Source: an uncultured beta proteobacterium (lineage in GTDB: Bacteria; Pseudomonadota; Gammaproteobacteria; Burkholderiales; Rhodocyclaceae). Taken from it: DNA of 34,031 bases. Made by a program: the position numbers and the translations under genes. Shown piece after piece: positions 3,152-32,702 of this stretch. The stretch is from NCBI GenBank assembly GCA_903959855.1, contig CAJBYR010000162.1, positions 1 through 34,031 of the forward strand, given 5' to 3'. A model generated the notes under the pieces. It worked only from the letters and a program-made list of their open reading frames with translations. It searched no databases and was not told the DNA's origin. Each line of letters opens with the position of its first letter. Within the stretch, counting starts at the first letter, position 1.

Positions 3152-3544
3152 ATGAAGCTGCTGCGTCTCGTCGCCACCCTGCTATTCGCGGCCATCGCCG
3201 TGTCGCCAGCGCCGACTCTTGCGGGCGAGGGCGGGCGCACGCCCAAGCCCGCGGTCTCGATCGAGAACCCGGGCAAATGCGTGGCACCGGCCGAAGAGAT
3301 GCGCCGCAACCACATGGAGATGCTCAAGCATCAACGTGACCGCACCATGCGTGACGGCATACGCGGCGAGCCGGCCTCGCTGAATGCCTGCATCGAATGC
3401 CATGCCGGCAAAACAAGCGGCTCCGTGCTGGGAGACGGCAAGGCCTTCTGCCAGGGCTGCCATGACTATGCCGCGGTCAAGCTCGACTGTTTCGAATGCC
3501 ACCAGCCCAAGCCGAAATTCAAGGCCGCAGGATTGAAACCATGA
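3152..3544 (+). CDS. dsrJ: DsrJ, periplasmic triheme cytochrome c
   Basis: Periplasmic haem subunit of DsrMKJOP. The 130-residue product has an N-terminal signal or membrane-anchor segment (residues 1-24) and three CxxCH haem sites: CIECH, CQGCH and CFECH. Cys43, in the GKCV segment, is outside any CxxCH. A. vinosum DsrJ has been described with one haem carrying an unusual His/Cys ligation, and Cys43 is the candidate for that ligand here. I chose the ATG at 3152 because it directly precedes the signal peptide; an upstream in-frame ATG at 3056 would lie inside dsrL. The stop overlaps the dsrO start by 4 bp (ATGA), implying translational coupling. The codons for the end of the signal peptide coincide with a dispersed ~27-bp repeat at 3194-3222. 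Confidence 0.93.
   Translation: MKLLRLVATLLFAAIAVSPAPTLAGEGGRTPKPAVSIENPGKCVAPAEEMRRNHMEMLKHQRDRTMRDGIRGEPASLNACIECHAGKTSGSVLGDGKAFCQGCHDYAAVKLDCFECHQPKPKFKAAGLKP
3194..3222 (+). repeat. Dispersed intragenic ~27-bp repeat, copy 1 (in dsrJ)
   Basis: This 29-bp stretch contains the core CGCCAGCGCCGACTCTTGC and matches copy 3 in the PFOR gene at 28 of 29 positions. In dsrJ it is read in the sense frame as the end of the signal peptide (I-A-V-S-P-A-P-T-L-A). Its complement would read RVGAGDTA, the peptide actually encoded by the copies in the PFOR and rnfG genes. Confidence 0.7.
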
Positions 3545-5529: not shown

Positions 5530-6936
5530 ATGCATCGCTTCCTGATTTCGGCCGCCCACAAGTCCTCGGGCAAGACCACCGTCAGCATCGGCCTCGCGGC
5601 GGCGTTGCGTCAGCGCCGACTCTCGGTGCAGCCCTACAAGAAGGGCCCGGACTACATCGATCCGCTGTGGCTGTCGGTGGCCGCCGGCCGGCCCTGCTAC
5701 AACCTTGACTTCTTTCTTTCGCCCGACGGCGAGCTGCGGCAGCAATTCGCCCGCCATGGCCACGATGCCGATGTCTGCCTGGTCGAGGGCAACAAGGGCC
5801 TCTACGACGGTCTCGACCTCGAAGGTTCCAACAGCAACGCCGCGCTGGCACGATTGCTCGACCTGCCCGTGGTCCTGGTGCTCGACGCCCGCGGCATGAC
5901 GCGCGGTATCGCGCCGCTGATCCTCGGCTACAAGGCCTTCGATCCGCAGATCCGGATTGCCGGCGTGATTCTCAATCGCCTCGGCGGACGCCGTCATGAA
6001 TCCAAGCTGCGCGCGGTGATCGAGCACTACACCGATGTCCCGGTGATCGGCGCCGTTCAGGAGGACGCCGAACTGGCCCTCGTCGAACGCCATCTGGGGC
6101 TGATGCCGGCCAACGAGACGGCGCAAGCCGGACGCCATGTTGCCGCCATCGCCCAACGCATTGCCGACCAGGTCGACCTTGACCGCCTGCTTGCTATCAG
6201 CGTCAGTGAGGTGAAACTCGCGCCACCACCGATGCGGCCACCAACCCGCACTGAACCGGTGCGCATCGCCATTGCCCGCGACGCGGCCTTTGGCTTCTAC
6301 TATGCTGATGACCTCGACGCACTGGCCGCGGCCGGCGCCGAACCGGTGTTCTTCGATACCCTGCGCGACCCGAAGCTCCCGCCCTGCGACGGCCTGCTGA
6401 TCGGCGGCGGCTTTCCCGAATGTTTCCTCGAACAACTGGAAGCCAACCGCTCCCTGCGCAGCGACATCCGCAACGCCATCGAGCAGGGACTGCCCACCTA
6501 TGCCGAATGCGGCGGCCTTATGTACCTCGCTCGCGGCATCGAATGGAAGGGGCGTCAGGCAGAGATGGTCGGTGCAATTCCGGGCGATATCCGCATGCAT
6601 GCCAAGCCCGTCGGTCGCGGCTACGTGATCCTCGAAAGCAATACCGACCACCCCTGGCGCGCCAGCGGTACCTCGTACGGCGGTGCCGAGCTGCACGGGC
6701 ATGAATTCCACTACTCCGACATCGGCGGATTGCCCGCCGACACGCGTTACGCCTATGCGATGCGCCGCGGACATGGCATCGATGGCACCAACGACGGCAT
6801 CCTGCGCCACCGGATGCTCGCCTCCTACACCCACCTGCGCGCCACGGCCGGCTGCGACTGGCCGGCCAAGTTCGTCCAGTACGTGCGCAGTTGCAAGAAT
6901 CCCGATTTGAAGGAATTTCCCGCATGTTCACTCTGA
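5530..6936 (+). CDS. dsrN: DsrN, glutamine-dependent siroheme amidase (CobB/CbiA-like)
   Basis: Homologue of cobyrinic acid a,c-diamide synthase. In dsr operons it is proposed to amidate siroheme to siroamide, the prosthetic group of dissimilatory sulfite reductase. The 468-residue protein has an N-terminal dethiobiotin-synthetase-like ATPase domain with a P-loop-like SSGKTT motif at residues 12-17, and YKKGPDYIDP near residue 36, typical of CbiA. A class I glutamine amidotransferase domain covers about residues 240-450, with the nucleophile Cys in TYAECGGLMYL near residue 328. It starts 20 bp after dsrP. Its last 13 bp overlap the chosen dsrR start. A partial match to the dispersed repeat core lies at 5611-5625. 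Confidence 0.92.
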   Translation: MHRFLISAAHKSSGKTTVSIGLAAALRQRRLSVQPYKKGPDYIDPLWLSVAAGRPCYNLDFFLSPDGELRQQFARHGHDADVCLVEGNKGLYDGLDLEGSNSNAALARLLDLPVVLVLDARGMTRGIAPLILGYKAFDPQIRIAGVILNRLGGRRHESKLRAVIEHYTDVPVIGAVQEDAELALVERHLGLMPANETAQAGRHVAAIAQRIADQVDLDRLLAISVSEVKLAPPPMRPPTRTEPVRIAIARDAAFGFYYADDLDALAAAGAEPVFFDTLRDPKLPPCDGLLIGGGFPECFLEQLEANRSLRSDIRNAIEQGLPTYAECGGLMYLARGIEWKGRQAEMVGAIPGDIRMHAKPVGRGYVILESNTDHPWRASGTSYGGAELHGHEFHYSDIGGLPADTRYAYAMRRGHGIDGTNDGILRHRMLASYTHLRATAGCDWPAKFVQYVRSCKNPDLKEFPACSL

Positions 6937-18004: not shown

Positions 18005-18644
18005 GTTGACCGGCCTCCGTGGGTTGTGCCGCGCGGCGCAGCTTGCGCCGCTCCAGCCAGGCGAAGAACAGCAGCCAGGCGCCGAGGACGAAGAAGCCGC
18101 CGGGCGGCAGCACCATGATCACCCAGGGCTGGAAGCCGGCGCCGAACAGGGTGATGCCGAACAGCGTGCCGGCGCCGAGGATCTCGCGCACCACGCCCAG
18201 CGCCAGCAGGCCGATGGTGAAGCCGACGCCCATGCCGGTGGCATTGATCATCGCCGACATGGGCGGATTCTTCGCGGCGTGCGCCTCGGCGCGGCCGAGG
18301 ATGATGCAGTTCACCACGATCAGCTGGATGAAGGCGCCCAGCGCATCGTAGAGCGCCAGGCTGATGGCCTGGATCGCGTAATCCACCGCTGTAACGAAGG
18401 TGGCGATGATCACGATGTACACCGCGATGCGCACTTCTTTAGGCGTCAGCTTGCGCATCAGCGACACCAAGCCGCAGGAGCAGACCAGCACGAACAGCGT
18501 CGCCACGCCCATCGATATGGCATTGATTGCCGAGACCGTGACGGCCAGCGTCGGGCACATGCCCAGCACCATGACGAAGACAGGGTTCTGGCGCCAGACG
18601 CCCTCCATGAACTCGTCCCAGGTGTTTGCCGTGCTTGGATTCAT
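17997..18644 (-). CDS. rnfE: RnfE, Rnf complex membrane subunit
   Basis: 215-residue membrane subunit, homologous to NqrD and to RnfA. It has six hydrophobic helices, with RQNPVFVMVLGMCPTLAVTVSAINAISMG near residue 18 and IQLIVVNCIILGRAEAHA near residue 108. The two half-helix cysteines pair with those of RnfA at the membrane iron-sulfur site. I chose the ATG at 18644 because it gives an ATGA overlap with rnfG and starts the conserved region; the longer open frame simply runs into rnfG. Confidence 0.95.
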   Translation of the reverse strand: MNPSTANTWDEFMEGVWRQNPVFVMVLGMCPTLAVTVSAINAISMGVATLFVLVCSCGLVSLMRKLTPKEVRIAVYIVIIATFVTAVDYAIQAISLALYDALGAFIQLIVVNCIILGRAEAHAAKNPPMSAMINATGMGVGFTIGLLALGVVREILGAGTLFGITLFGAGFQPWVIMVLPPGGFFVLGAWLLFFAWLERRKLRRAAQPTEAGQHV

Positions 18645-19357
18645 GATTTTCCCGCGACTTTGTCGAGATTCGGCAGCAGGCGCGGCAGTAGCGCCTGCGC
18701 CGAATCGTTGATGGCCTTGCCCACGGCGCGCGAGGTGATCGTGGCGCCGGAAATGGCGTCGATCTGCCAGGCGCTGGCCTTGCTGCCGTGCTTGACCGCC
18801 TTGACCTCGTTGGCCAGCGACGAAAGGTCGGCCTTGAGCTTGAGGTCGAGCGCCGTGAAGTTGGCGAGGAATTCCTTGTCGGTGATGATCTTGTCGCCGA
18901 TGCCCGGGGTCTCGCGCATCGACACCACGCCGATGCCGACCACGCACTGGCAGTCCGGCTGGTAGCCGAACATGATGCGCACGTTGTCGGCATAGCCCTT
19001 GCCCACACCCTCGGCGGCGATGCCGGCGAGCTTGCCGGACTCGTCGTAGGCAGCGAAGAACTTGACCGCGCCGGGCGGAATCGCCGTCTCGCCAGCGCCG
19101 ACTTTCGAAACGCCACCACCCGGCTGGGCGACGAATTCCGCGATCGACTTCGCCGCCGGGATCACCTTGAATACCGCACGCTCGGTGGCGATGCGCTTGT
19201 TGGCGGCGACCGCGTCGTAGGTGCCCTGGTAGGCGCCGACGATGATCAGGCCGCAGATGGCCGAGACCAGGCCGAGCGTACGGATCATCGCGCCGGTCGG
19301 CGATTCGGGCGGTGGCGAAGCCTGCTCAACGATGGGGATCACACGATGGTCGCTCAT
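18641..19357 (-). CDS. rnfG: RnfG, FMN-binding subunit of Rnf complex
   Basis: 238-residue subunit with one N-terminal transmembrane anchor (IRTLGLVSAICGLIIVGAYQGTY) and a periplasmic domain. FMN is attached covalently to the Thr in the SGATITS motif near residue 210. GIGVVSMRETPGIGDKI near residue 140 is also a family signature. The ATG at 19357 shares one base with the rnfD stop; a GTG at 19360 is an equally close alternative. A linker near residues 85-95 (SKVGAGETAI) is encoded by copy 2 of the dispersed repeat. Confidence 0.94.
   Translation of the reverse strand: MSDHRVIPIVEQASPPPESPTGAMIRTLGLVSAICGLIIVGAYQGTYDAVAANKRIATERAVFKVIPAAKSIAEFVAQPGGGVSKVGAGETAIPPGAVKFFAAYDESGKLAGIAAEGVGKGYADNVRIMFGYQPDCQCVVGIGVVSMRETPGIGDKIITDKEFLANFTALDLKLKADLSSLANEVKAVKHGSKASAWQIDAISGATITSRAVGKAINDSAQALLPRLLPNLDKVAGKS
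19080..19107 (-). repeat. Dispersed intragenic ~27-bp repeat, copy 2 (in rnfG)
   Basis: Shares the core CGCCAGCGCCGACT and the preceding ATCGCCGT with copies 1 and 3 (one variable base inside the first 24). In rnfG it reads KVGAGETAI, in the same frame as the PFOR copy (RVGAGDTAI). It lies in the linker between the membrane anchor and the FMN domain. Confidence 0.7.
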
Positions 19358-20502
19358 CACTTTTTCGGCTTCTTCGGCAGGAAGCGCTTCTTCGGCGTCA
19401 CCGCGCTGGCTTCTTCGCGCGAGATGTAACCCGGGTTCAGCGGATAGGTGGCGCGCTTCTTAACCCGGTCGAGCACGCCGCGGCCGAAGGGCACCGGCTG
19501 GGTGACTCTCTCGATCAGTGGCGAAGCCGCATTGGCGATCAGGATCGCGTACATCACGCCTTCCGGCAGGCCGCTGTAATAGCGGATCACCACGGTCAGC
19601 AGGCCGATCAGCGCGCCATACACCCACATGCCCTTGGGCGTCACCGGCGAAGTCGCCATGTCGGTCGCCATGTACACCGCGCCGAGGACCAGGCCGCCGG
19701 AGAACAGCATGAAGAAGGGATTCGGATAACGCGCGGCATCGAAGGCGAACAGCAGCCAGGCCGTCAGCGCCGCGCTGCCCAGCACCGCCAGCGGGATGCG
19801 CCAGTCCATGAAACGCCGCGCCGCGAGGTAAGCGCCGCAGAGCAGGATCAGCAGGGGTGACGGCCCGACTGCCATGTTGCCGGAAAGCGAAGTCAGCAGC
19901 TCGTCGGCATTGACCAGCACGCCGTCGAACTTCCACTTCGCCAGCGGCGTCGCCCCGGCCAACGCATCCAGGCTCTTGGCCTTGAGCCAGGGCAAGGGAT
20001 CGGCCGGGATCATCAGCGGCCAGGCCAGCGTCGACGGGATGAATTCGCTGAAGCGCCCGGGCAGGAAGGATGGCGTATAGGTCGCGATCGCCGTCGGGAA
20101 AGCCGCCTGGACGAAGGCGCGGCCGACCAGCGCCGGGTTGAAGACATTGAAGCCGATGCCGCCAAACAGAGCCTTGCCCAGGGCGATGGCGACGAGGCCG
20201 GCCACGGCGCCCATCCACAGCGGGAAGCCCGGCGGCAGCGTCAGCGCCAGCAGCAAGCCGGTGATGACGGCGGAGTAATCCGACAGGCGTCCGGCCTGGG
20301 TGCCGGTACCGACGAAGAAGCGCTCGGTGAGCAGGCAGGCGCCCGTCACCACGACGATCGAGAACAGCGCCGAGATGCCGTACTGGAACACGTAGAAGGC
20401 GCAGATCGGCAGCAGCGAGTACACCACGTTGCGCATGATGGTCTCGACCGTTTTCGCGGCCTGCACATGCGGTGCCGAGCGGATCTCGATCGGAGTGGTC
20501 AT
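19357..20502 (-). CDS. rnfD: RnfD, FMN-binding membrane subunit of Rnf complex
   Basis: 381-residue membrane subunit, homologous to NqrB, with a covalently bound FMN and a role in ion translocation. The N-terminus (SAPHVQAAKTVETIMRNVVYSLLP) is the family's SPH-type start. SLDALAGATPL near residue 185 holds the threonine expected to carry FMN. About ten hydrophobic helices are visible, and the C-terminus is Lys-rich (KKRFLPKKPKK). I chose the ATG at 20502 for its 4-bp ATGA overlap with the rnfC stop. Confidence 0.95.
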   Translation of the reverse strand: MTTPIEIRSAPHVQAAKTVETIMRNVVYSLLPICAFYVFQYGISALFSIVVVTGACLLTERFFVGTGTQAGRLSDYSAVITGLLLALTLPPGFPLWMGAVAGLVAIALGKALFGGIGFNVFNPALVGRAFVQAAFPTAIATYTPSFLPGRFSEFIPSTLAWPLMIPADPLPWLKAKSLDALAGATPLAKWKFDGVLVNADELLTSLSGNMAVGPSPLLILLCGAYLAARRFMDWRIPLAVLGSAALTAWLLFAFDAARYPNPFFMLFSGGLVLGAVYMATDMATSPVTPKGMWVYGALIGLLTVVIRYYSGLPEGVMYAILIANAASPLIERVTQPVPFGRGVLDRVKKRATYPLNPGYISREEASAVTPKKRFLPKKPKK

Positions 20503-21992: not shown

Positions 21993-24900
21993 TCAGTTGA
22001 ACTTGGCGGCCCTTGCCATGAGTTTCTCTATGCCCGGCTCGCTCATGTTCCAGGGCGTGCCGGGATGGATGCAGCCGGCCGTGCACTTCTCGGCCGACTT
22101 GACGATGTCGGCGAACTTCGCGCCCTTGGGGTTGATCACCACGGCCAGCTTCTGGTCGTTGTAGGCGAAGGTCTTCGGCGCCAACGTGGTGCATTCGTCG
22201 CAGGCCGTGCATTCGGGCGACTCGACCCAGACCGGCTCGTAGTCGCCGTCTGCACTCGAAATCGCCGTATCGCCAGCGCCGACTCTTGCATCGCCGCCCG
22301 CTGGCACCATGGAAGCGCCCTGCCCCAGCGCCGCGCTGATCTTCGCCAGCATATCTTCGCGCACCCGTGACTCGACCTCTTCCATGTCCGTCCCTTGCGC
22401 GCCGATGCCGGCCAGGCCGCGCAGTTGCCGCCAGAAGTGCAGCCGCTCCTCGGCCGACTTGATGAGTTCCTTGGTCACCAGCAGGCGCATCAGGCGGTTC
22501 TTCTTGTCCACCGCCCAGATGAAGGGGAACTTTCCTTCGCGCTCGTCGGCATCGAGTTCGAGGAACTCGGCCACCGGCACCATGGTTTCGTTCCAGGTCT
22601 CGGGCGGTGCCTTGCGGAAATGCTTGAGGAAGCGCGCCTCGGTCGCGGCGAAGTCGGCGAAGGTCAGCGGCAGGGTCATGCTCTGCTGGGCGCCGGCCTC
22701 ATCGATGTACTTCAGCGCATAGGTCGGCCAGTCCGTATCGAGCGAGGGATTGCCTTCCAGGCTGACGCATTCGGCGAAGGTGGTGCCCGCATCCGGGTCG
22801 AAGCGGAACAGCGGATAGGCGCGGCCCTCCACCGCCAGCTTGCTCTGGTCCACGCTCTTGTCGTCGCCGACGCCATGCTCGGGCGGACACACGGCGTAGA
22901 TGTTGAACAGCGCCGGGCGGCGGCTGTTGAGGCCGTCGATGTAGCTTTCGATCAGGTGATTGACATGCGCGATGGTGCCCGACATCACGTAGGAGGTGCG
23001 GTGCGCCATGCCGATCAGGCTGATCTCCTTCCTCACCTCCTGCTTGCCGCGCTGGGCGTCGCCCCAGGGCGCCATGTCCGAGACCTGGCTGATGAAGCCC
23101 GAGGTGCAGGCCTGGCCGCCGGTGTTCGAATACACCTGGGTATCGACCACCAGGATCTTCACCGGCATGCCCGACATCAGCACGCGCGACAGGTTCTGGA
23201 AGCCGATGTCATACATCGCGCCGTCGCCACCGATCGACACCACCGGCGGGCAGAGATGCCACTCGTCGGCCGAGAACTGCTGCCAGTTGAAGCGGCGGAA
23301 GAAATCGTCGTCGCGGTCCGGCAGGTAGTCGCCGACGAGTTCCTGCTCCGCCTTGCGCACGGCCTTGAAGCCGTCGGCCATCTTCGCCATGTGGCCCTCG
23401 AAAATGCCCATCGCCACCGAAGGCGAATCCTGAAAGAGATGCGAGGTCCACGGGAAGGGATAGGGATGGAAGGGATAGGTCGAGCCCCAGACCGAGGTGC
23501 AGCCCGTGGAGTTGATGATGCCCATCTCGGCGCGGCCGCGCTTGGTCGGTCCCTCGACGTAGCGCCACTTGAGGTCCTTCAACTTTTCCAGCAGTTGCGC
23601 GGTGTTCTTCACCCAGGCCGGATCGAGCAATTGCGAAGGCTTGTCGGCGTTCAGCTTGTTGGCCAGGTTCGACAGCGTCAGATCGTGCTGGCCGGTCGAC
23701 TCGACCGCGCGTATCACGGCACTGGCATCGGTGAGATCGACGGCCGAAGCCAGCTTGACGCGCATGTGTTGTTCCAGGCGCGTGACCAGGTCGTCGATCT
23801 TTTCGACGAACGCGGCAACGCGCGGCTGCATCAGTGCCGTCACGGTCGACGTGAACAAGTGGATCGCGGTCTTCTCGCCGCAACCGAGGCAGGCGCCGTC
23901 GCCGCAGTTCATCGAACCGTAGTTCTTCTTGTCCAGCAGCAGGGTTTCCAGCGCGCCGATCTTCTCGTCGAGGCTGTCGATGCGGCTGTATTCCTTGGGC
24001 GTGGTCGGCAGTTCCAGCCAGGTGTTCCAGTCGCGGCGCAGACGCTCGACGGAGTCTTCGGTCTGGGTCACCATCTTCAGCGCATTGTCCTCGCAGACCG
24101 TCACGCACAACGCGCAGCCCTTGCAGGTATAGGGGTTGACGGTGATCGAGAACAGGCCGCCGCTGCCCTTGGCCTTCTTCTCGCGGTTGCCCCAGTAGGG
24201 CTTGGTGGCGGCGAACTGGAAGCCGCCGAGATGGATCTGCAACTGGGTGAATTCAGCGGCGAGGCCGGCACGCTCGGCTTCCGGCGTTTCGGCCAGCACC
24301 GCATCCATGGCGCGGTCGAACAGCGGACGCACATAGCCGCCTTCGTTGTCGACCAGCGTACGCAGCTTCTTCTCGATGGATCGCGCGGCGCGGCGCAGGT
24401 AGCGCGTCGGCGTGCCGCCGGTCTCGATGCGGGTGATCGCCGTGTTGAGCACATCGCCGATCGAGCTGACCAGGCCGGGGATCGCCGAGTCCGGGCATTC
24501 GACGTAGCAGTTGCCGCAGGCCGTGCAGTTCTCCGCGATCCATTCCGGATGCTCGAAACGGATGCCGGTCATGTCGCGGAAGACGCCGGTCGCGGCCGGC
24601 ACCAGCGAAGCGCCGATGAAGGGATCGACGATGTTGTCGTTGCCGCGGCCAGTCAGGTAGAAGTGGCCGGTCTGTTCCCAGAAGCGGTGGATGTCGCCGA
24701 CCTTGCCCGACTGGGCCTCGCCCACCACCGGCAGTTGCCTGAGCATGATCGGCAGCCCGGCATCCTTCTTGACGAAGCCCTTGCGCGTGAGGCCGACTTC
24801 CTTTTCGGTGATCTCGGTCAGCTCGGTGAAGCCGCGGCGCACCACGCGCAGGTTGTCCGCCACCACGCGCGCGCCCTTGCCGCCGAACTTGGATTGCAAC

Positions 24901-26951
24901 TGGGCCTCGATCGCGGTGAACAATGCGTCCTCGGTCAGGCCGGCATTGGCCATGGTCGGGCTGGCGGCGAAGAAGGCGCCCTGGAAGGCGATGCCCTGCA
25001 TGCGCAGTTGCAGTTCGGCCGCGCCGGCTTCCTCCCGTGCGATCTGGAAGGCGTCGAGATGGAAGACGCGGATCTCGTTATCGGCGATGAACTTCTGCGC
25101 CCAGAGCGGGAAGCTGGCCCAGGTTTCGCTGCCGAGGTTGGACTGGATGATGAAGAAGCCGCCGCGCTTCAATCCCGACAGCGGGTTGCTATGGCCGAAC
25201 ACCGCCGGGTCGGGCGAGAGCACGACATCGACATAGGTGTATTCGCAGTTGATGCGGATCGGCTCCGGCGCCGCCGAGAGGTAATAGGTGGTCGGCTGGC
25301 CCTTCTTCTCCGAGCCGTATTTCGGATTGGCCTTGATGTCCCAGCCCAGCAACTCGAACAGGGTCATCGCCAGGTTCTTGCCGGTGGTGATGGCGCCCCA
25401 GCCGCCGACCGAATGCATGCGCACCGTTATCGCGCCCTTCGGCAGCAGGTTGGGATTCTCGGAGCCGCGCACGCCCAGCGCGCGGATCTGCGGGTACTTG
25501 TCGGCGATGTCCTGCTGATGCACCTCGTCCTTGGGATTCAGCGGATCGCGCGCGAAGTCGATCGAGAGGTAGAAGAACTTGCGCTGCGTACCGTTGGGCA
25601 ACATGTTCTCGATGGTGCCGATCAGCGCTTCCGGTTGCAGGTCTCGGCTACCCAGGCCGTAACAGCCGGAATACAGGCGCGGCATCTCGGCGGCGGCATA
25701 CACCGCATAGCCGGCGTAGGGAGCATCCTTCTGCCCCTGGGCAATCGCCATGCCGTTCTCCACGCACTTCATCAACGTGGCGCGCACTTCGCGCATCAGC
25801 GGCAGGTCTTCGGCCAGCGGCTGGTCGGTGCGCTCCAGCACCGCCACGCCCTTCTTGCCGCGCAGCACCTCGCCCAGCAGGTCGCCGGGGAAGGGACGGA
25901 ACATGGTGAGGTTCACCACGCCGACCTTGAGCTTGCGCGTCTCGCGCAGGTAGTCGGCGACGGCCTCGGCCTGCACGATCATGCTGCCCATGCCGAGGAT
26001 GATGTAATCGGCATCCTCGGTCTTGAAGCCGGAGACGCGCTGGTAGCGGCGCCCGGTCAGCGCGGCGAACTCGTCCATGCAGCCGTCGGCGAGAGCCGCG
26101 ACGTGGTCGAAGAAATACGGCCGCTGGCCGGCGGTGGCCTGCATGTAGGCATCCTGGTTCTGCACCGAGCCCGACAGCAGCGGCAGGTCCACATCCCAGA
26201 TCGCCGGAACGCGACGGCGCCTGGGGCCGTAGAGCATCTGCTGCGCCGGCGTCGGCGAGTCGATCAGATCGTCGGGACGGCCGAGGTATTCGGCAACCAG
26301 TTCGCGCTCGGGCAGCACGCAGGATTCGATCAGGTGGCTGGTGAGGAAGCCGTCCTGGCCGACGATGGCCGGCGTTAGCGAAAGCTCGGCGGTCTTGCGC
26401 GCGACCAGGTTCAGGTCGGCGGCCTCGGTGGCATTCTTCGCCATCATCTGGATGAAGCCGGTGTCATCGACGCAGTGGTAGTCGTCGTGGCCGGCATGCA
26501 CATTGAGAGAGGCCTTGGTGATGGCGCGGCAGCCCATGTTGAGTACGTAGGGCAGGCGCTTGCCGACCGCGGCGTAGAGCGACTCGTGCATGAAGGCCAC
26601 GCCCTGCGCCGAGGAAAAGTTGGTCGCGCGCAGGCCCGTCATGGCCATGCCGGCGGTGACGCCGGCGGCGGCGTGCTCGGACTCGGGCTCGATGAAAATC
26701 AGCGGCTTGTCGGAAATGTTGAGGTGGCCCTTGGCGACCTCCTCGGCCCAGTACTCGCCCATCTGCGTCGAGGGCGTGATCGGGTAGGCACCGGCGGCGT
26801 CCGACGACTCGCGCTCGACGTGGATAACGGCGGTGTTGCCGTCGACCGCGTCGCGCAGCCCGGGGTACTTGACCTTGCCCGCGGCGACACCCGCGCCGGT
26901 TTGCGGCAGCAGTCCGTTGGAGAACATCTTTTTGATCATCGAGAGTGTCAT
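21993..26951 (-). CDS. Large single-chain pyruvate/2-oxoacid:ferredoxin oxidoreductase
   Basis: 1652 residues, against about 1170-1200 for NifJ-type PFOR. Oxidative decarboxylation of a 2-oxoacid (probably pyruvate) to acyl-CoA with reduction of ferredoxin. Domains in order: the alpha/TPP-pyrimidine region with AYPITPSTQMGEYW near residue 48; the gamma-like region with VGGWGAITTGKNLA; [4Fe-4S] motifs CTACGNCYVECP (about 807) and CKGCALCVTVC (about 942); the beta/TPP region with CGDGACLGCGEKTA (about 1012) and GGDGAMYDIGFQNL to DTQVYSNTGGQ (about 1243-1280); and a C-terminal one-cluster ferredoxin-like domain (CTACDECTTLAPKTF, CTAGCIHPG). The ATG at 26951 has GAGGAAG upstream. The gene lies 22 bp after rnfB and 123 bp before rnfC. 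Copy 3 of the dispersed repeat encodes part of the linker before the last domain. Substrate specificity is not readable from the sequence. Confidence 0.88.
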   Translation of the reverse strand: MTLSMIKKMFSNGLLPQTGAGVAAGKVKYPGLRDAVDGNTAVIHVERESSDAAGAYPITPSTQMGEYWAEEVAKGHLNISDKPLIFIEPESEHAAAGVTAGMAMTGLRATNFSSAQGVAFMHESLYAAVGKRLPYVLNMGCRAITKASLNVHAGHDDYHCVDDTGFIQMMAKNATEAADLNLVARKTAELSLTPAIVGQDGFLTSHLIESCVLPERELVAEYLGRPDDLIDSPTPAQQMLYGPRRRRVPAIWDVDLPLLSGSVQNQDAYMQATAGQRPYFFDHVAALADGCMDEFAALTGRRYQRVSGFKTEDADYIILGMGSMIVQAEAVADYLRETRKLKVGVVNLTMFRPFPGDLLGEVLRGKKGVAVLERTDQPLAEDLPLMREVRATLMKCVENGMAIAQGQKDAPYAGYAVYAAAEMPRLYSGCYGLGSRDLQPEALIGTIENMLPNGTQRKFFYLSIDFARDPLNPKDEVHQQDIADKYPQIRALGVRGSENPNLLPKGAITVRMHSVGGWGAITTGKNLAMTLFELLGWDIKANPKYGSEKKGQPTTYYLSAAPEPIRINCEYTYVDVVLSPDPAVFGHSNPLSGLKRGGFFIIQSNLGSETWASFPLWAQKFIADNEIRVFHLDAFQIAREEAGAAELQLRMQGIAFQGAFFAASPTMANAGLTEDALFTAIEAQLQSKFGGKGARVVADNLRVVRRGFTELTEITEKEVGLTRKGFVKKDAGLPIMLRQLPVVGEAQSGKVGDIHRFWEQTGHFYLTGRGNDNIVDPFIGASLVPAATGVFRDMTGIRFEHPEWIAENCTACGNCYVECPDSAIPGLVSSIGDVLNTAITRIETGGTPTRYLRRAARSIEKKLRTLVDNEGGYVRPLFDRAMDAVLAETPEAERAGLAAEFTQLQIHLGGFQFAATKPYWGNREKKAKGSGGLFSITVNPYTCKGCALCVTVCEDNALKMVTQTEDSVERLRRDWNTWLELPTTPKEYSRIDSLDEKIGALETLLLDKKNYGSMNCGDGACLGCGEKTAIHLFTSTVTALMQPRVAAFVEKIDDLVTRLEQHMRVKLASAVDLTDASAVIRAVESTGQHDLTLSNLANKLNADKPSQLLDPAWVKNTAQLLEKLKDLKWRYVEGPTKRGRAEMGIINSTGCTSVWGSTYPFHPYPFPWTSHLFQDSPSVAMGIFEGHMAKMADGFKAVRKAEQELVGDYLPDRDDDFFRRFNWQQFSADEWHLCPPVVSIGGDGAMYDIGFQNLSRVLMSGMPVKILVVDTQVYSNTGGQACTSGFISQVSDMAPWGDAQRGKQEVRKEISLIGMAHRTSYVMSGTIAHVNHLIESYIDGLNSRRPALFNIYAVCPPEHGVGDDKSVDQSKLAVEGRAYPLFRFDPDAGTTFAECVSLEGNPSLDTDWPTYALKYIDEAGAQQSMTLPLTFADFAATEARFLKHFRKAPPETWNETMVPVAEFLELDADEREGKFPFIWAVDKKNRLMRLLVTKELIKSAEERLHFWRQLRGLAGIGAQGTDMEEVESRVREDMLAKISAALGQGASMVPAGGDARVGAGDTAISSADGDYEPVWVESPECTACDECTTLAPKTFAYNDQKLAVVINPKGAKFADIVKSAEKCTAGCIHPGTPWNMSEPGIEKLMARAAKFN
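22261..22289 (-). repeat. Dispersed intragenic ~27-bp repeat, copy 3 (in PFOR gene)
   Basis: 28 of 29 positions equal copy 1 in dsrJ (core CGCCAGCGCCGACTCTTGC on the + strand). In the PFOR frame it reads ARVGAGDTAI, in the linker just before the C-terminal ferredoxin-like domain. Confidence 0.75.
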
Positions 26952-26973
26952 GGCAGCTTCCTCAAATGCAAAT

Positions 26974-27813
26974 TCAGACGTGCAACGGCAGCGGCTCGTT
27001 GCGCAGGATCTTTTTGGCCGCCGCGCCCTTGGCGGCGCGGTCGGCGGTTTCGAACCAGACGATGGCGCCGGTCGGGCAGCGCTCGATGGGTTCGCGCGTG
27101 GCCTGGTCGTTCCAGTCGTAATTGACCACGGCCAGGTTGCCGGCAAGCTGCATCAGCTTCAGCGGCGCGTCGGCGACGCACTTGCCGCAGGCGGTGCAGG
27201 CCACCTCGCAGGCGGCCTCGGCGGTGTCGCCGTCCGCCTGGTTCTTGCAGGCCACCCAGAGGCGGTGGCTGACCGACTCGAGGCTGAACAGGCCCTTCGG
27301 ACAGACCTCGACGCAGTCGTTGCAGGCGGTGCATTTGGCGCTATCGACCACCGGCAGGCCGTGCATGTCCATGTGGATGGCATCGAAGGTGCATACGTTG
27401 GCACAGTCGGCGAGGCCAAGGCATCCCCAGGCGCATTCCTTGCCACCGCCCGAGACCACGGCCGCCGCCCGGCAGGTCTTGAGCCCCTCATAGCGCGCGC
27501 GCAAAAACGCCACATGACGACCGCCACCGCAGGCCAGCCGTGCCACCTGCTTTTCCACCGTGCCGGCGGCGACGCCGAGCAGGTCGGCGATGCCCTGGCG
27601 CTGCTGCGGCGAACTCACCGTGCATTTGGCGGGGATGGTGTCGCCGCCCACCACCTTCTCGGCGAAGTCACGGCAGCCGGCCTGGCCGCAGGCACCGCAA
27701 TTGGACTTGGGCAGCAGGTCCTCGACCTGGCCGATGCGCGGGTCCTCGAAGACGTAGAGCTTTTTGTTGGCGATGGCGAGCAGCAGGGCGAGCAGAACGC
27801 CCAGCCCGGCCAT
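26974..27813 (-). CDS. rnfB: RnfB, multi-cluster ferredoxin subunit of Rnf complex
   Basis: 279-residue subunit that takes electrons from soluble ferredoxin. An N-terminal transmembrane anchor (MAGLGVLLALLLAIANKK) is followed by a 4Fe-S domain (NCGACGQAGCRDFAEKVV ... KC, near residues 36-66) and ferredoxin-type motifs: CAWGCLGLADCANVC, CTACNDCVEVCP and CEVACTACGKCV. It ends in a domain with CPTGAIVWF. The ATG at 27813 has AGGAGG 5 bp upstream and begins the anchor; a longer frame from 27873 lacks support. It is the first gene of the rnfB-PFOR-rnfCDGEA block and is separated from the other rnf genes by the PFOR gene, which is unusual. Confidence 0.93.
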   Translation of the reverse strand: MAGLGVLLALLLAIANKKLYVFEDPRIGQVEDLLPKSNCGACGQAGCRDFAEKVVGGDTIPAKCTVSSPQQRQGIADLLGVAAGTVEKQVARLACGGGRHVAFLRARYEGLKTCRAAAVVSGGGKECAWGCLGLADCANVCTFDAIHMDMHGLPVVDSAKCTACNDCVEVCPKGLFSLESVSHRLWVACKNQADGDTAEAACEVACTACGKCVADAPLKLMQLAGNLAVVNYDWNDQATREPIERCPTGAIVWFETADRAAKGAAAKKILRNEPLPLHV

Positions 27814-31715: not shown

Positions 31716-32702
31716 ATGAAGTACATCGAACACGGCAAGGGCGGCGGCCCGGAGTGCATGACGCTGGCCGAGGGCCCCGTCCCGCAACCCGCTCCCGGCC
31801 AGATCCTGATCGAAGTCGTCTGCGCCGGCGTCAACCGCCCGGACTGCCTGCAACGCTCGGGCAGGTACCCGCCCCCGCCCGACGCCTCGCCCGTCCTCGG
31901 CCTCGAGGTCGCCGGCCGCGTCAAAGCCGTCGGCGAGGGCGTGACGGAATGGAAAGTCGGCGCTGGCGTGACGGCGCTCACGCCCGGCGGCGGCTATGCC
32001 GAGTACTGCGTGGCGGCCGCCAGCCACGCGCTGCCGATTCCCGATGGCATGGACTACGCCACGGCGGCGGCGCTGCCGGAGACCTGGTTCACCGTCTGGG
32101 CCAACCTCGTCGACCTCGGCCGCTTGAAGCAAGGCGAACGCCTGCTGGTGCATGGCGGCTCCAGCGGCATCGGCCTGGTTGCGATCCAGCTCGCCAAGCA
32201 CTTGGGCGTGGAGTGCCTCGTCACCGTCGGCAGCGAAGAGAAGGCCACCTTCTGCCGCGAGGTGGGTGCTGCGCATGCGATCAACTACCGCACCCAGGAC
32301 TTTGCCGAGGAAGTGAAGCGCATCACCGGAGGCACGGGCGTGGATGTGATCCTGGACATGGTGGGCGCGCCCTACCTGCAGCGCAATCTCGCCAGCCTGC
32401 GCCGCGACGGCCGGCTGGTGATTGTGGCCTTTCTCGAAGGCAGCAAGGGCGAGGCCGACCTGATGCCGGTGATGATCAAGCGCCTGACGATCACCGGCTC
32501 GACCATGCGCCCGCGCACCCTGGCCGAGAAGACGGCGATCCGCGACGCGCTGGCCGCCAACATCTGGCCCGCGCTGTCACGCGGCGAACTGCTGCCGCAC
32601 CTTTACGCGCGCTTTCCGCTGGCACAGGCGGCGGAGGCGCACCGGCTGATGGAATCGAGCAAACATATCGGCAAGATTGTTTTGGAGGTTCGCCCGCAGT
32701 AA
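31716..32702 (+). CDS. NAD(P)H quinone oxidoreductase, zinc-independent MDR family
   Basis: 328-residue medium-chain reductase of the QOR/PIG3 group. Signatures are VCAGVNRPDCLQRSGRYPPPP near residue 38, PGGGYAEYC near residue 90, the NADPH-binding LVHGGSSGIGLVAIQLAKHLG near residue 144, and the C-terminal SSKHIGKIVLEV. It lacks the catalytic zinc ligands of alcohol dehydrogenases. AAGGAG lies 7 bp before the ATG. Near residue 82, where relatives have VGDxVxAL, this protein has VGAGVTAL, encoded by copy 4 of the dispersed repeat. Confidence 0.92.
   Translation: MKYIEHGKGGGPECMTLAEGPVPQPAPGQILIEVVCAGVNRPDCLQRSGRYPPPPDASPVLGLEVAGRVKAVGEGVTEWKVGAGVTALTPGGGYAEYCVAAASHALPIPDGMDYATAAALPETWFTVWANLVDLGRLKQGERLLVHGGSSGIGLVAIQLAKHLGVECLVTVGSEEKATFCREVGAAHAINYRTQDFAEEVKRITGGTGVDVILDMVGAPYLQRNLASLRRDGRLVIVAFLEGSKGEADLMPVMIKRLTITGSTMRPRTLAEKTAIRDALAANIWPALSRGELLPHLYARFPLAQAAEAHRLMESSKHIGKIVLEVRPQ
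31952..31978 (+). repeat. Dispersed intragenic ~27-bp repeat, copy 4 (in quinone oxidoreductase gene)
   Basis: On the minus strand this stretch contains CGCCAGCGCCGACTTTC and differs from copy 2 at 2 positions over 27. It is inverted relative to copies 1-3. In the gene it reads KVGAGVTAL, in the same frame as the copies in rnfG and the PFOR gene. Confidence 0.6.

What the first reader, a model, noticed from the sequence alone, without database searches (positions are those of the whole stretch)
22261..22289. Dispersed ~27-bp repeat inserted in-frame in unrelated genes: PFOR copy
The same motif (ATCGCCGT, one variable base, then TCGCCAGCGCCGACT) occurs in dsrJ, rnfG, the PFOR gene and, inverted and slightly diverged, in a quinone oxidoreductase gene. 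The PFOR and dsrJ copies match at 28 of 29 bases although the genes are unrelated and on opposite strands. Here it encodes ARVGAGDTAI in a linker before the C-terminal ferredoxin-like domain. Four copies of a 24-29-mer in 34 kb cannot be chance. It may be a spreading intragenic element, a recombination or uptake signal, or a protein linker module.
Basis: seen in the sequence. Interest (0 to 1): 0.75.

Follow-up and report, generated by a model that had tools for sequence, protein, structure and literature searches.

The report
Genome-wide DNA-uptake-like signal in Sulfuritalea relatives
A 24-27-letter DNA word recurs hundreds of times in the genome of this bacterium and its close relatives, inside and between unrelated genes, and behaves like the tags by which a few bacteria recognise their own kind's DNA when taking up genes from outside.

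Summary
The own genome (4.26 Mb) holds 360 matches to the 24-mer with up to 3 mismatches, 179/181 on the two strands; reversed-pattern control 0. All 31 genomes searched of the genus carry it, 28 to 600 each; Sulfuritalea is the commonest genus label among named hits. Consensus: wTCGCCGTN[TC]CGCCAGCGCCGACT[CT]T[CT], sharp-edged.

It is not an insertion: of 145 ortholog rows at 12 copies none lacks a clean motif-sized block, and rows without the motif mostly align gaplessly. Codon-wobble bases are conserved inside the motif (0.84 against 0.64 in flanks) while the N position is free (0.46), so the DNA, not the peptide, is constrained. Five of six frames are used, replication strand shows no clear bias, two other genera have dialects, one nested lineage has lost most copies, and phage contigs carry it.

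Best explanation (0.6): DNA uptake sequences like DUS/USS, in a third family. Uptake itself is untested; inverted pairs, usual for DUS/USS, are rare here, and no receptor could be singled out. Side finding: small hairpin elements sit inside the motif at recurrent positions.

The parts
22261..22289 (+). The copy in question (motif strand +), inside the PFOR gene on the - strand; read there as ARVGAGDTAI in the linker before the C-terminal ferredoxin-like domain
   Evidence: 0 mismatches; 20 orthologues aligned, 22 ortholog rows counted
3194..3222 (+). Copy in dsrJ, coding for the end of the signal peptide (IAVSPAPTLA)
   Evidence: 0 mismatches; kept with 0-4 mismatches and no gap in 18 of 18 aligned congeners, of 29 loci fetched
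19080..19106 (+). Copy in rnfG (gene on - strand)
   Evidence: 0 mismatches; orthologues
31952..31978 (-). Copy in a PIG3-type quinone oxidoreductase gene (gene on + strand), 2 mismatches
   Evidence: gapless orthologues without the motif in G016 and G035
5598..5626 (+). Half-formed site (right half CAGCGCCGACTCTC, 5 mismatches over the 24-mer)
   Evidence: gapless orthologues without it in G007, G018 and G033
21993..27146 (-). Host gene: pyruvate:ferredoxin oxidoreductase
3152..3544 (+). Host gene: dsrJ
18641..19360 (-). Host gene: rnfG
31716..32702 (+). Host gene: PIG3-type quinone oxidoreductase
5530..6936 (+). Host gene: cobyrinate a,c-diamide synthase-like

Best explanation
The repeat is a genome-wide DNA-uptake-sequence-like word. 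Shown here: it is the strongest over-represented 12-mer family of the sampled genome, lies on both strands in many genes and frames, arises by base substitution in existing sequence, is kept at the DNA level at orthologous places across the genus, has dialects in two other genera, has decayed in one nested lineage, and is carried by phage contigs. Inferred: a surface DNA receptor of the natural-transformation machinery (by analogy a minor type IV pilin) prefers DNA with this word, so fragments of kin DNA that bear it are taken up and recombined more often, and well-matching alleles spread and are kept wherever a linker, signal peptide, surface loop or non-coding stretch tolerates them.
For: 360 copies, 179/181 by strand, control 0; closed genome G002 282/292. 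Dominant 12-mer CCAGCGCCGACT: 35 observed, 0.6 expected in 354 kb of G000; 40 and 0.8 in 400 kb of G002. Substitution origin: 145 ortholog rows at 12 copies, 103 with motif, 23 gapless with more than 4 mismatches, 19 gapped, no clean motif-sized absence; half-formed copy at 5598. DNA-level constraint: wobble identity 0.835 in motif, 0.641 in flanks, higher in 11 of 12 copies, Wilcoxon p 0.001; free position 58 of 125; holds base by base. dsrJ site kept in 18 of 18 aligned congeners. Dialects in G037 and G048. Decay in G016, nested by a ComEC tree. At least 120 viral stretches with an exact 24-base form, reversed control 0; in Pasteurellaceae lysogenic phages accumulate uptake sequences (PMC6776037, passages). 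ComEC in 30 of 31 genus genomes; pilin-like genes in 8 of 8. One motif-free 20-kb stretch of G002 is lineage-specific.
Against: No uptake data. Inverted pairs, common for DUS and USS, are rare: 2 in 400 kb of G002, 0 in 354 kb of G000. ComEC is also present in 30 of 30 other-genus genomes of the family, nearly all poor in the motif, and in G016, so it does not track the motif. No pilin group was present in all six motif-rich genomes and missing from G016 and G025. The conserved word is longer than the 9-12 nt of DUS/USS (PMC12616744 passage). Spacing is close to random. In G000 the coding share equals that of random points.
Confidence: 0.6

Rival explanations
1. A chromosome-wide binding site for a nucleoid, segregation or repair protein, selected in place for chromosome biology rather than for uptake.
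For: DNA-level conservation at orthologous places and even genome-wide cover (20-kb counts with variance/mean 1.02) would also follow.
Against: No clear orientation bias along the replichores (37 leading against 32, or 40 against 29 if the first stretch is assigned by its own skew); copies in at least 120 viral stretches; presence inside many coding sequences. None of these excludes it.
Confidence: 0.17
2. A word that spreads and is kept by biased gene conversion or recombination alone (a selfish sequence drive) without any uptake receptor.
For: Substitution origin and concerted drift into dialects need only a transmission bias.
Against: No known conversion process favours a fixed 24-27-bp word (established knowledge, recalled); decay in G016 shows that maintenance can be switched off, which suggests a specific reader.
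Confidence: 0.13
3. A mobile mini-element that inserts in-frame into genes (RPE- or MITE-like).
For: Copies in unrelated genes and variable linkers; other small hairpin repeats do behave like insertions here.
Against: No clean empty site in 145 ortholog rows, although gaps of 27 and 36 nt were bridged by the same alignments; no palindrome; flanking bases show no duplication in the logo.
Confidence: 0.04
4. A peptide linker module conserved for its protein sequence.
For: The VGAGDTAI-type frame is the most used, 28 of 65 copies with a clear frame.
Against: Other frames give unrelated peptides (14 IAVSPAPT-, 10 SALATRR-, 9 RRLASAD- and 4 QRRL-type of 65); conservation is strongest at synonymous positions; 17 of 57 and 29 of 69 copies lie outside coding-like sequence by a crude score.
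Confidence: 0.02

Closest known systems
DNA uptake sequence (DUS) of Neisseriaceae
   Same: Hundreds to thousands of copies, both strands, intragenic copies in permissive regions, genus-specific dialects (PMC3630211 passages; PMC2346458 part 1 of 3).
   Different: DUS is a 10-12-mer, denser, often in inverted terminator pairs, with a known receptor (ComP); here a 24-27-bp word, few inverted pairs, receptor unknown, uptake untested, different sequence.
Uptake signal sequence (USS) of Pasteurellaceae
   Same: A conserved core plus outer conserved positions; two dialects; phages accumulate it; lower density in strain-specific DNA (PMC7811141 passages; PMC6776037 passages).
   Different: USS has a 9-bp core with AT-rich tracts; here two GC-rich arms with a free base between them; unrelated sequence and family.
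Rickettsia palindromic elements and similar intragenic mini-elements (recalled, no call)
   Same: A short repeat found inside many unrelated genes.
   Different: Those are insertions of palindromic elements; here the word arises by substitution and has no palindrome.
HIP1 of cyanobacteria (PMC4390886, seen in a search listing)
   Same: A highly iterated word within and between genes.
   Different: HIP1 is an 8-bp palindrome; this is a non-palindromic 24-27-bp word.

Membership tests
Genome-wide DNA uptake sequences (DUS/USS) | DNA bearing the word is taken up or transforms better | not testable with these tools
   Needs an uptake assay.
Genome-wide DNA uptake sequences (DUS/USS) | Hundreds or more copies of one dominant over-represented word | tested here: met
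Genome-wide DNA uptake sequences (DUS/USS) | Both strands, no general orientation bias in the genome | tested here: met
   179/181, 282/292, 37 against 32 by replichore in sampled G002.
Genome-wide DNA uptake sequences (DUS/USS) | Clade-specific dialects of one word | tested here: met
   G037 and G048 against G000/G002; congruence with phylogeny only loosely seen.
Genome-wide DNA uptake sequences (DUS/USS) | Lower density in recently acquired DNA | tested here: inconclusive
   One motif-free lineage-specific 20-kb stretch.
Genome-wide DNA uptake sequences (DUS/USS) | Inverted pairs acting as terminators (typical, not defining) | tested here: not met
   2 pairs in 400 kb of G002, 0 in 354 kb of G000.
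Genome-wide DNA uptake sequences (DUS/USS) | Competence machinery present (ComEC, type IV pilins) | tested here: met
   ComEC 30 of 31 genus genomes; pilin N-terminal motifs in 8 of 8. Not specific: ComEC is in 91 of 101 genomes.
Genome-wide DNA uptake sequences (DUS/USS) | Sequence-specific receptor | tested here: inconclusive
   No pilin tracked motif abundance.
Mobile intragenic insertion element | Clean empty sites in orthologues | tested here: not met
   None in 145 ortholog rows at 12 copies.
Replication-oriented words (Chi, KOPS) | Strong leading-strand bias | tested here: not met
   37 against 32 (or 40 against 29) in sampled G002.

The most novel reading that the evidence does not exclude
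A third bacterial family has independently evolved genome-wide, dialect-forming DNA uptake sequences with a 24-27-bp word; phages of these hosts carry the word, and small hairpin elements insert into it at fixed positions, exploiting or disabling single uptake sites.
Probability: 0.5. Interest if true: 0.87.

Novelty: new variant of a known kind. Interest (0 to 1): 0.73.

Why it matters
[quoted passage not shown] A third case in environmental bacteria would test whether such systems depend on a mucosal host, how uptake words arise and drift, and what limits their length. It would also give a sequence tag that links uncultured phages to hosts. The near-loss in the G016/G025 lineage is a natural experiment for finding the receptor.

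Tried and rejected
Insertion or MITE reading: no clean empty site. Linker module: frames and synonymous conservation speak against it. Chi/KOPS-type word: no clear strand bias. The one-sided strands seen in the listings come from truncated listings; the whole counts for G002 are 282/292.

Receptor search: ComEC, GspH and prepilin N-termini in 8 genomes gave no gene present in all six motif-rich genomes and missing from G016 and G025. One search grouped 104 pilin-like ORFs by reciprocal best hits; groups of fewer than 3 were not shown, and assembly gaps could hide genes.

Inverted pairs: rare. Even spacing: weak (CV 0.74 against 0.87 simulated, P 0.051; gaps under 1 kb 9 against 10.6, P 0.35).

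Rows dropped: two L074 copies (1228, 1770) had no ortholog row; ortholog rows not spanning the whole motif were left out, which could hide a large indel, although indels of 27 and 36 nt were bridged. Some genomes give two rows at one copy. Only 80 of the 120 viral stretches were analysed. Contig-length identity as proof of a name failed once: G000:C66 and JAUXOM010000125.1 have equal length but share no sequence.

Papers: (DNA uptake sequence + Accumulibacter; uptake sequence + Sulfuritalea; DNA uptake sequence + Rhodocyclales; mixed terms) found no paper; in the listings I saw no title or abstract start about this motif. The library holds open-licence papers only.

Full report
1. Observation. 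The motif is real and at the stated places (four sites; no match in 100 shuffles). The window is a whole contig (C162) of a 4.26-Mb, 347-contig genome. That genome holds 360 matches with up to 3 mismatches, 179 on one strand and 181 on the other; the pattern read backwards gives 0. Among 101 genomes, all 31 of the genus (own included) have it: 28 in G016, 104 in G021, 154 in G025, 249-600 in the other 28; backward controls 0-1 per genome. Of 30 genomes from other genera of the family, 27 have 0-5; the exceptions are G037 (431), G048 (42) and G052 (17). The 40 genomes of other families of the order have 0-3.

2. Who carries it. By my count of their titles 39 are labelled Sulfuritalea, 31 'Rhodocyclaceae bacterium', 21 'Rhodocyclales bacterium', 10 'uncultured beta proteobacterium', 5 Rugosibacter and 11 other labels. 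Two unnamed relatives share contig number and length with named MAGs (G018:C81 and CAIVQO010000081, 84,264; G037:C5 and CAMDMZ010000005, 148,302); equal length alone can mislead. That the window's genus is Sulfuritalea (NCBI family Sterolibacteriaceae) is inferred, not shown.

3. Anatomy. Logos from 56 copies in 354 kb of G000 (stretches chosen around listed copies) and 69 copies in 400 kb of the closed genome G002 (evenly spaced stretches) give wTCGCCGTN[TC]CGCCAGCGCCGACT[CT]T[CT], falling to background within a few bases on either side. The right core GCGCCGACT and left arm CGCCGT are nearly invariant; position 9 is free. I see no palindrome. It is the top over-represented 12-mer family in both samples (CCAGCGCCGACT 35 against 0.6 expected, 40 against 0.8). 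Copies with 0-4 mismatches number 57 and 69; the reversed motif has none with 0-4.

4. Placement. In G002 the 20-kb counts are Poisson-like (variance/mean 1.02). Orientation does not clearly follow replication: I sum 37 leading and 32 lagging, taking the halves of the map as replichores from the GC-skew signs (40 and 29 if the first stretch is assigned by its own skew). By a crude codon score 40 of 57 (G000) and 40 of 69 (G002) copies sit in coding-like sequence, against 748 and 771 of 1000 random points: mostly intragenic, with an excess outside genes in G002 only. Of 126 copies 65 had a clear frame: 28 VGAGDTAI-type, 14 IAVSPAPT, 10 SALATRR, 9 RRLASAD, 4 QRRL; the sixth frame was not among the clear cases.

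5. Substitution, not insertion. Twelve copies (3 in the window, 4 in L074, 5 in L071) were compared with orthologues, 145 rows. Genus without G016: 103 of 134 rows keep the motif (up to 4 mismatches, no gap), 16 exceed 4 mismatches without a gap, 15 are gapped. G016: 3 of 5 gapless without motif, 2 gapped. Outside the genus: 4 of 6 gapless without motif, 2 gapped. Of the 23 gapless rows above 4 mismatches, 11 have just 5 (weakened copies) and 12 have 6-13. Of the 19 gapped rows, 17 have indels of a few bases within the motif, and many of these still show most of it; two have 27- and 36-nt insertions in the orthologue's motif (G013, G007). No row shows a clean motif-sized absence. In the quinone oxidoreductase, G016 and G035 align base for base without the motif (6 and 9 mismatches). 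At 5598, G007, G018 and G033 have other bases, gapless, where the own genome has the right half and G008 a near version; many other congeners have a longer loop there.

6. DNA-level constraint. At these 12 copies, identity of orthologues to the own copy at wobble positions is 0.835 in the motif and 0.641 in flanks, higher in 11 of 12 copies (Wilcoxon p 0.001). First and second codon positions differ little (mean +0.034, p 0.09). The free position stands at 58 of 125. By base: C 0.94 against 0.68, G 0.85 against 0.70, A 0.60 against 0.32, T 0.87 against 0.35. One copy (L074 10397) goes the other way (0.67 against 0.71). Caveats: rows are related species, and own copies were chosen for matching the motif. 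In dsrJ the motif codes for the end of the signal peptide; all 18 aligned congeners, of 29 loci fetched, keep it gaplessly with 0-4 mismatches while much of the rest of the signal peptide differs. At the PFOR site 15 of 22 rows keep it; G023 and G021 clearly lack it.

7. Dialects and decay. G037 favours CGCCGTCCCGCCAGCACCGACTTTT and G048 TGCCGTCCCGCCAGCGCCGACTTT. Sites matching a general core with up to 2 mismatches run per Mb at 189 (G000), 188 (G002), 200 (G037), 200 (G048), 100 (G052), 66 (G016), 40 (G036), 10 (G034), 0 (G047); a Markov control over the G000 and G002 stretches gave 7 in 754 kb. G000, G037 and G052 stretches were partly chosen near listed copies, so their densities are inflated. 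On a ComEC tree of 20 genomes G016 (8 copies per Mb) pairs with G025 (37 per Mb; support 88/91, not strong) within a 10-genome group (99/98) of the genus, which points to loss rather than late gain.

8. Phages and islands. At least 120 viral-contig stretches carry an exact 24-base form (scan stopped at its limit); the reversed control gives 0. In 80 of them, 95 copies with up to 3 mismatches lie in 752 kb, most being the selected copy itself; the hosts are not known. In Pasteurellaceae almost all lysogenic phages accumulate USS (PMC6776037, passages). The only sampled G002 stretch with no copy (1.90-1.92 Mb) is lineage-specific: the longest match in 29 relatives is about 1.9 kb at 72%, whereas G000 stretches with copies match relatives over several kb at 80-90%. 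This is a single case.

9. Mechanism. The pattern fits an uptake sequence: a receptor-preferred word that spreads by uptake and recombination and is kept where tolerated. Shown: abundance, use of both strands, substitution origin, DNA-level constraint, dialects, decay, phage copies. Inferred: uptake bias, receptor, drive. Against or neutral: ComEC does not track the motif, no pilin does, inverted pairs are few, the word is long.

10. Known relatives. DUS and USS share abundance, both orientations, intragenic placement and dialects (PMC3630211 passages; PMC2346458 part 1 of 3; PMC7811141 passages). A 2025 paper names Neisseriaceae and Pasteurellaceae as the only families known for this (PMC12616744 passages). 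I found no paper joining this group with uptake sequences. I say 'works like an uptake sequence', not 'is one'.

11. Side finding. Small hairpin elements sit inside the motif at recurrent positions: GGAAGGAAGTCCC..GGGG types between the left part and GCCGACT (own genome L089:18653-18703 minus and L090:15059-15112; also L143, L335); CAGCGCTCTGCGTCCCTGCGGGA types before ACT (L047, L066, L186; similar in L287); and a 36-38-nt TACCTGCCCGCGAAGCGG..CAGGTACGCAGAGCG type after CGCCGT (L044, L091, L105, L342; inverted in L166). The last also occurs away from the motif (L270, tandem in L303). They may target the motif; mobility is not shown.

Noticed in passing
L089:18653-18703 (-), L090:15059-15112 (+) of the own genome; L143, L335, L047, L066, L186, L287, L044, L091:8336, L105:1430, L342, L166: Small hairpin-forming elements (three types) lie inside the 27-bp motif at recurrent positions; possible mobile elements that target it.
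   Followed up: partly
L368:880-2240 (viral contig IMGVR_UViG_3300009945_000063): Five motif copies at about 316-bp spacing in an array that looks like integron cassettes with attC-like ends (recalled resemblance: GCCTAAC...GTTAGGC).
   Followed up: no
L303:1896-1990 (G016): The CCTGCCCGCAAAGCGG..CCAGG hairpin repeat occurs three times in tandem with a 36-bp period in the motif-poor genome.
   Followed up: no
L106:19149-19197 and L110:1777-1826 (G002): Two inverted motif pairs, 25-26 bp apart, form near-perfect hairpins; the only such pairs in 400 kb.
   Followed up: partly
window 3152-3230 (dsrJ 5' end) and L628, L629, L631, L636, L639, L640: The start of dsrJ upstream of the motif differs strongly between congeners, in L631 and L640 with a CTCTGCGCCTCTGCG-type repeat just upstream, while the motif itself is kept.
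   Followed up: no
G002:C1:1900001-1920000 (L101): A lineage-specific 20-kb stretch without any motif copy, in the part of the map where the GC skew changes sign.
   Followed up: partly
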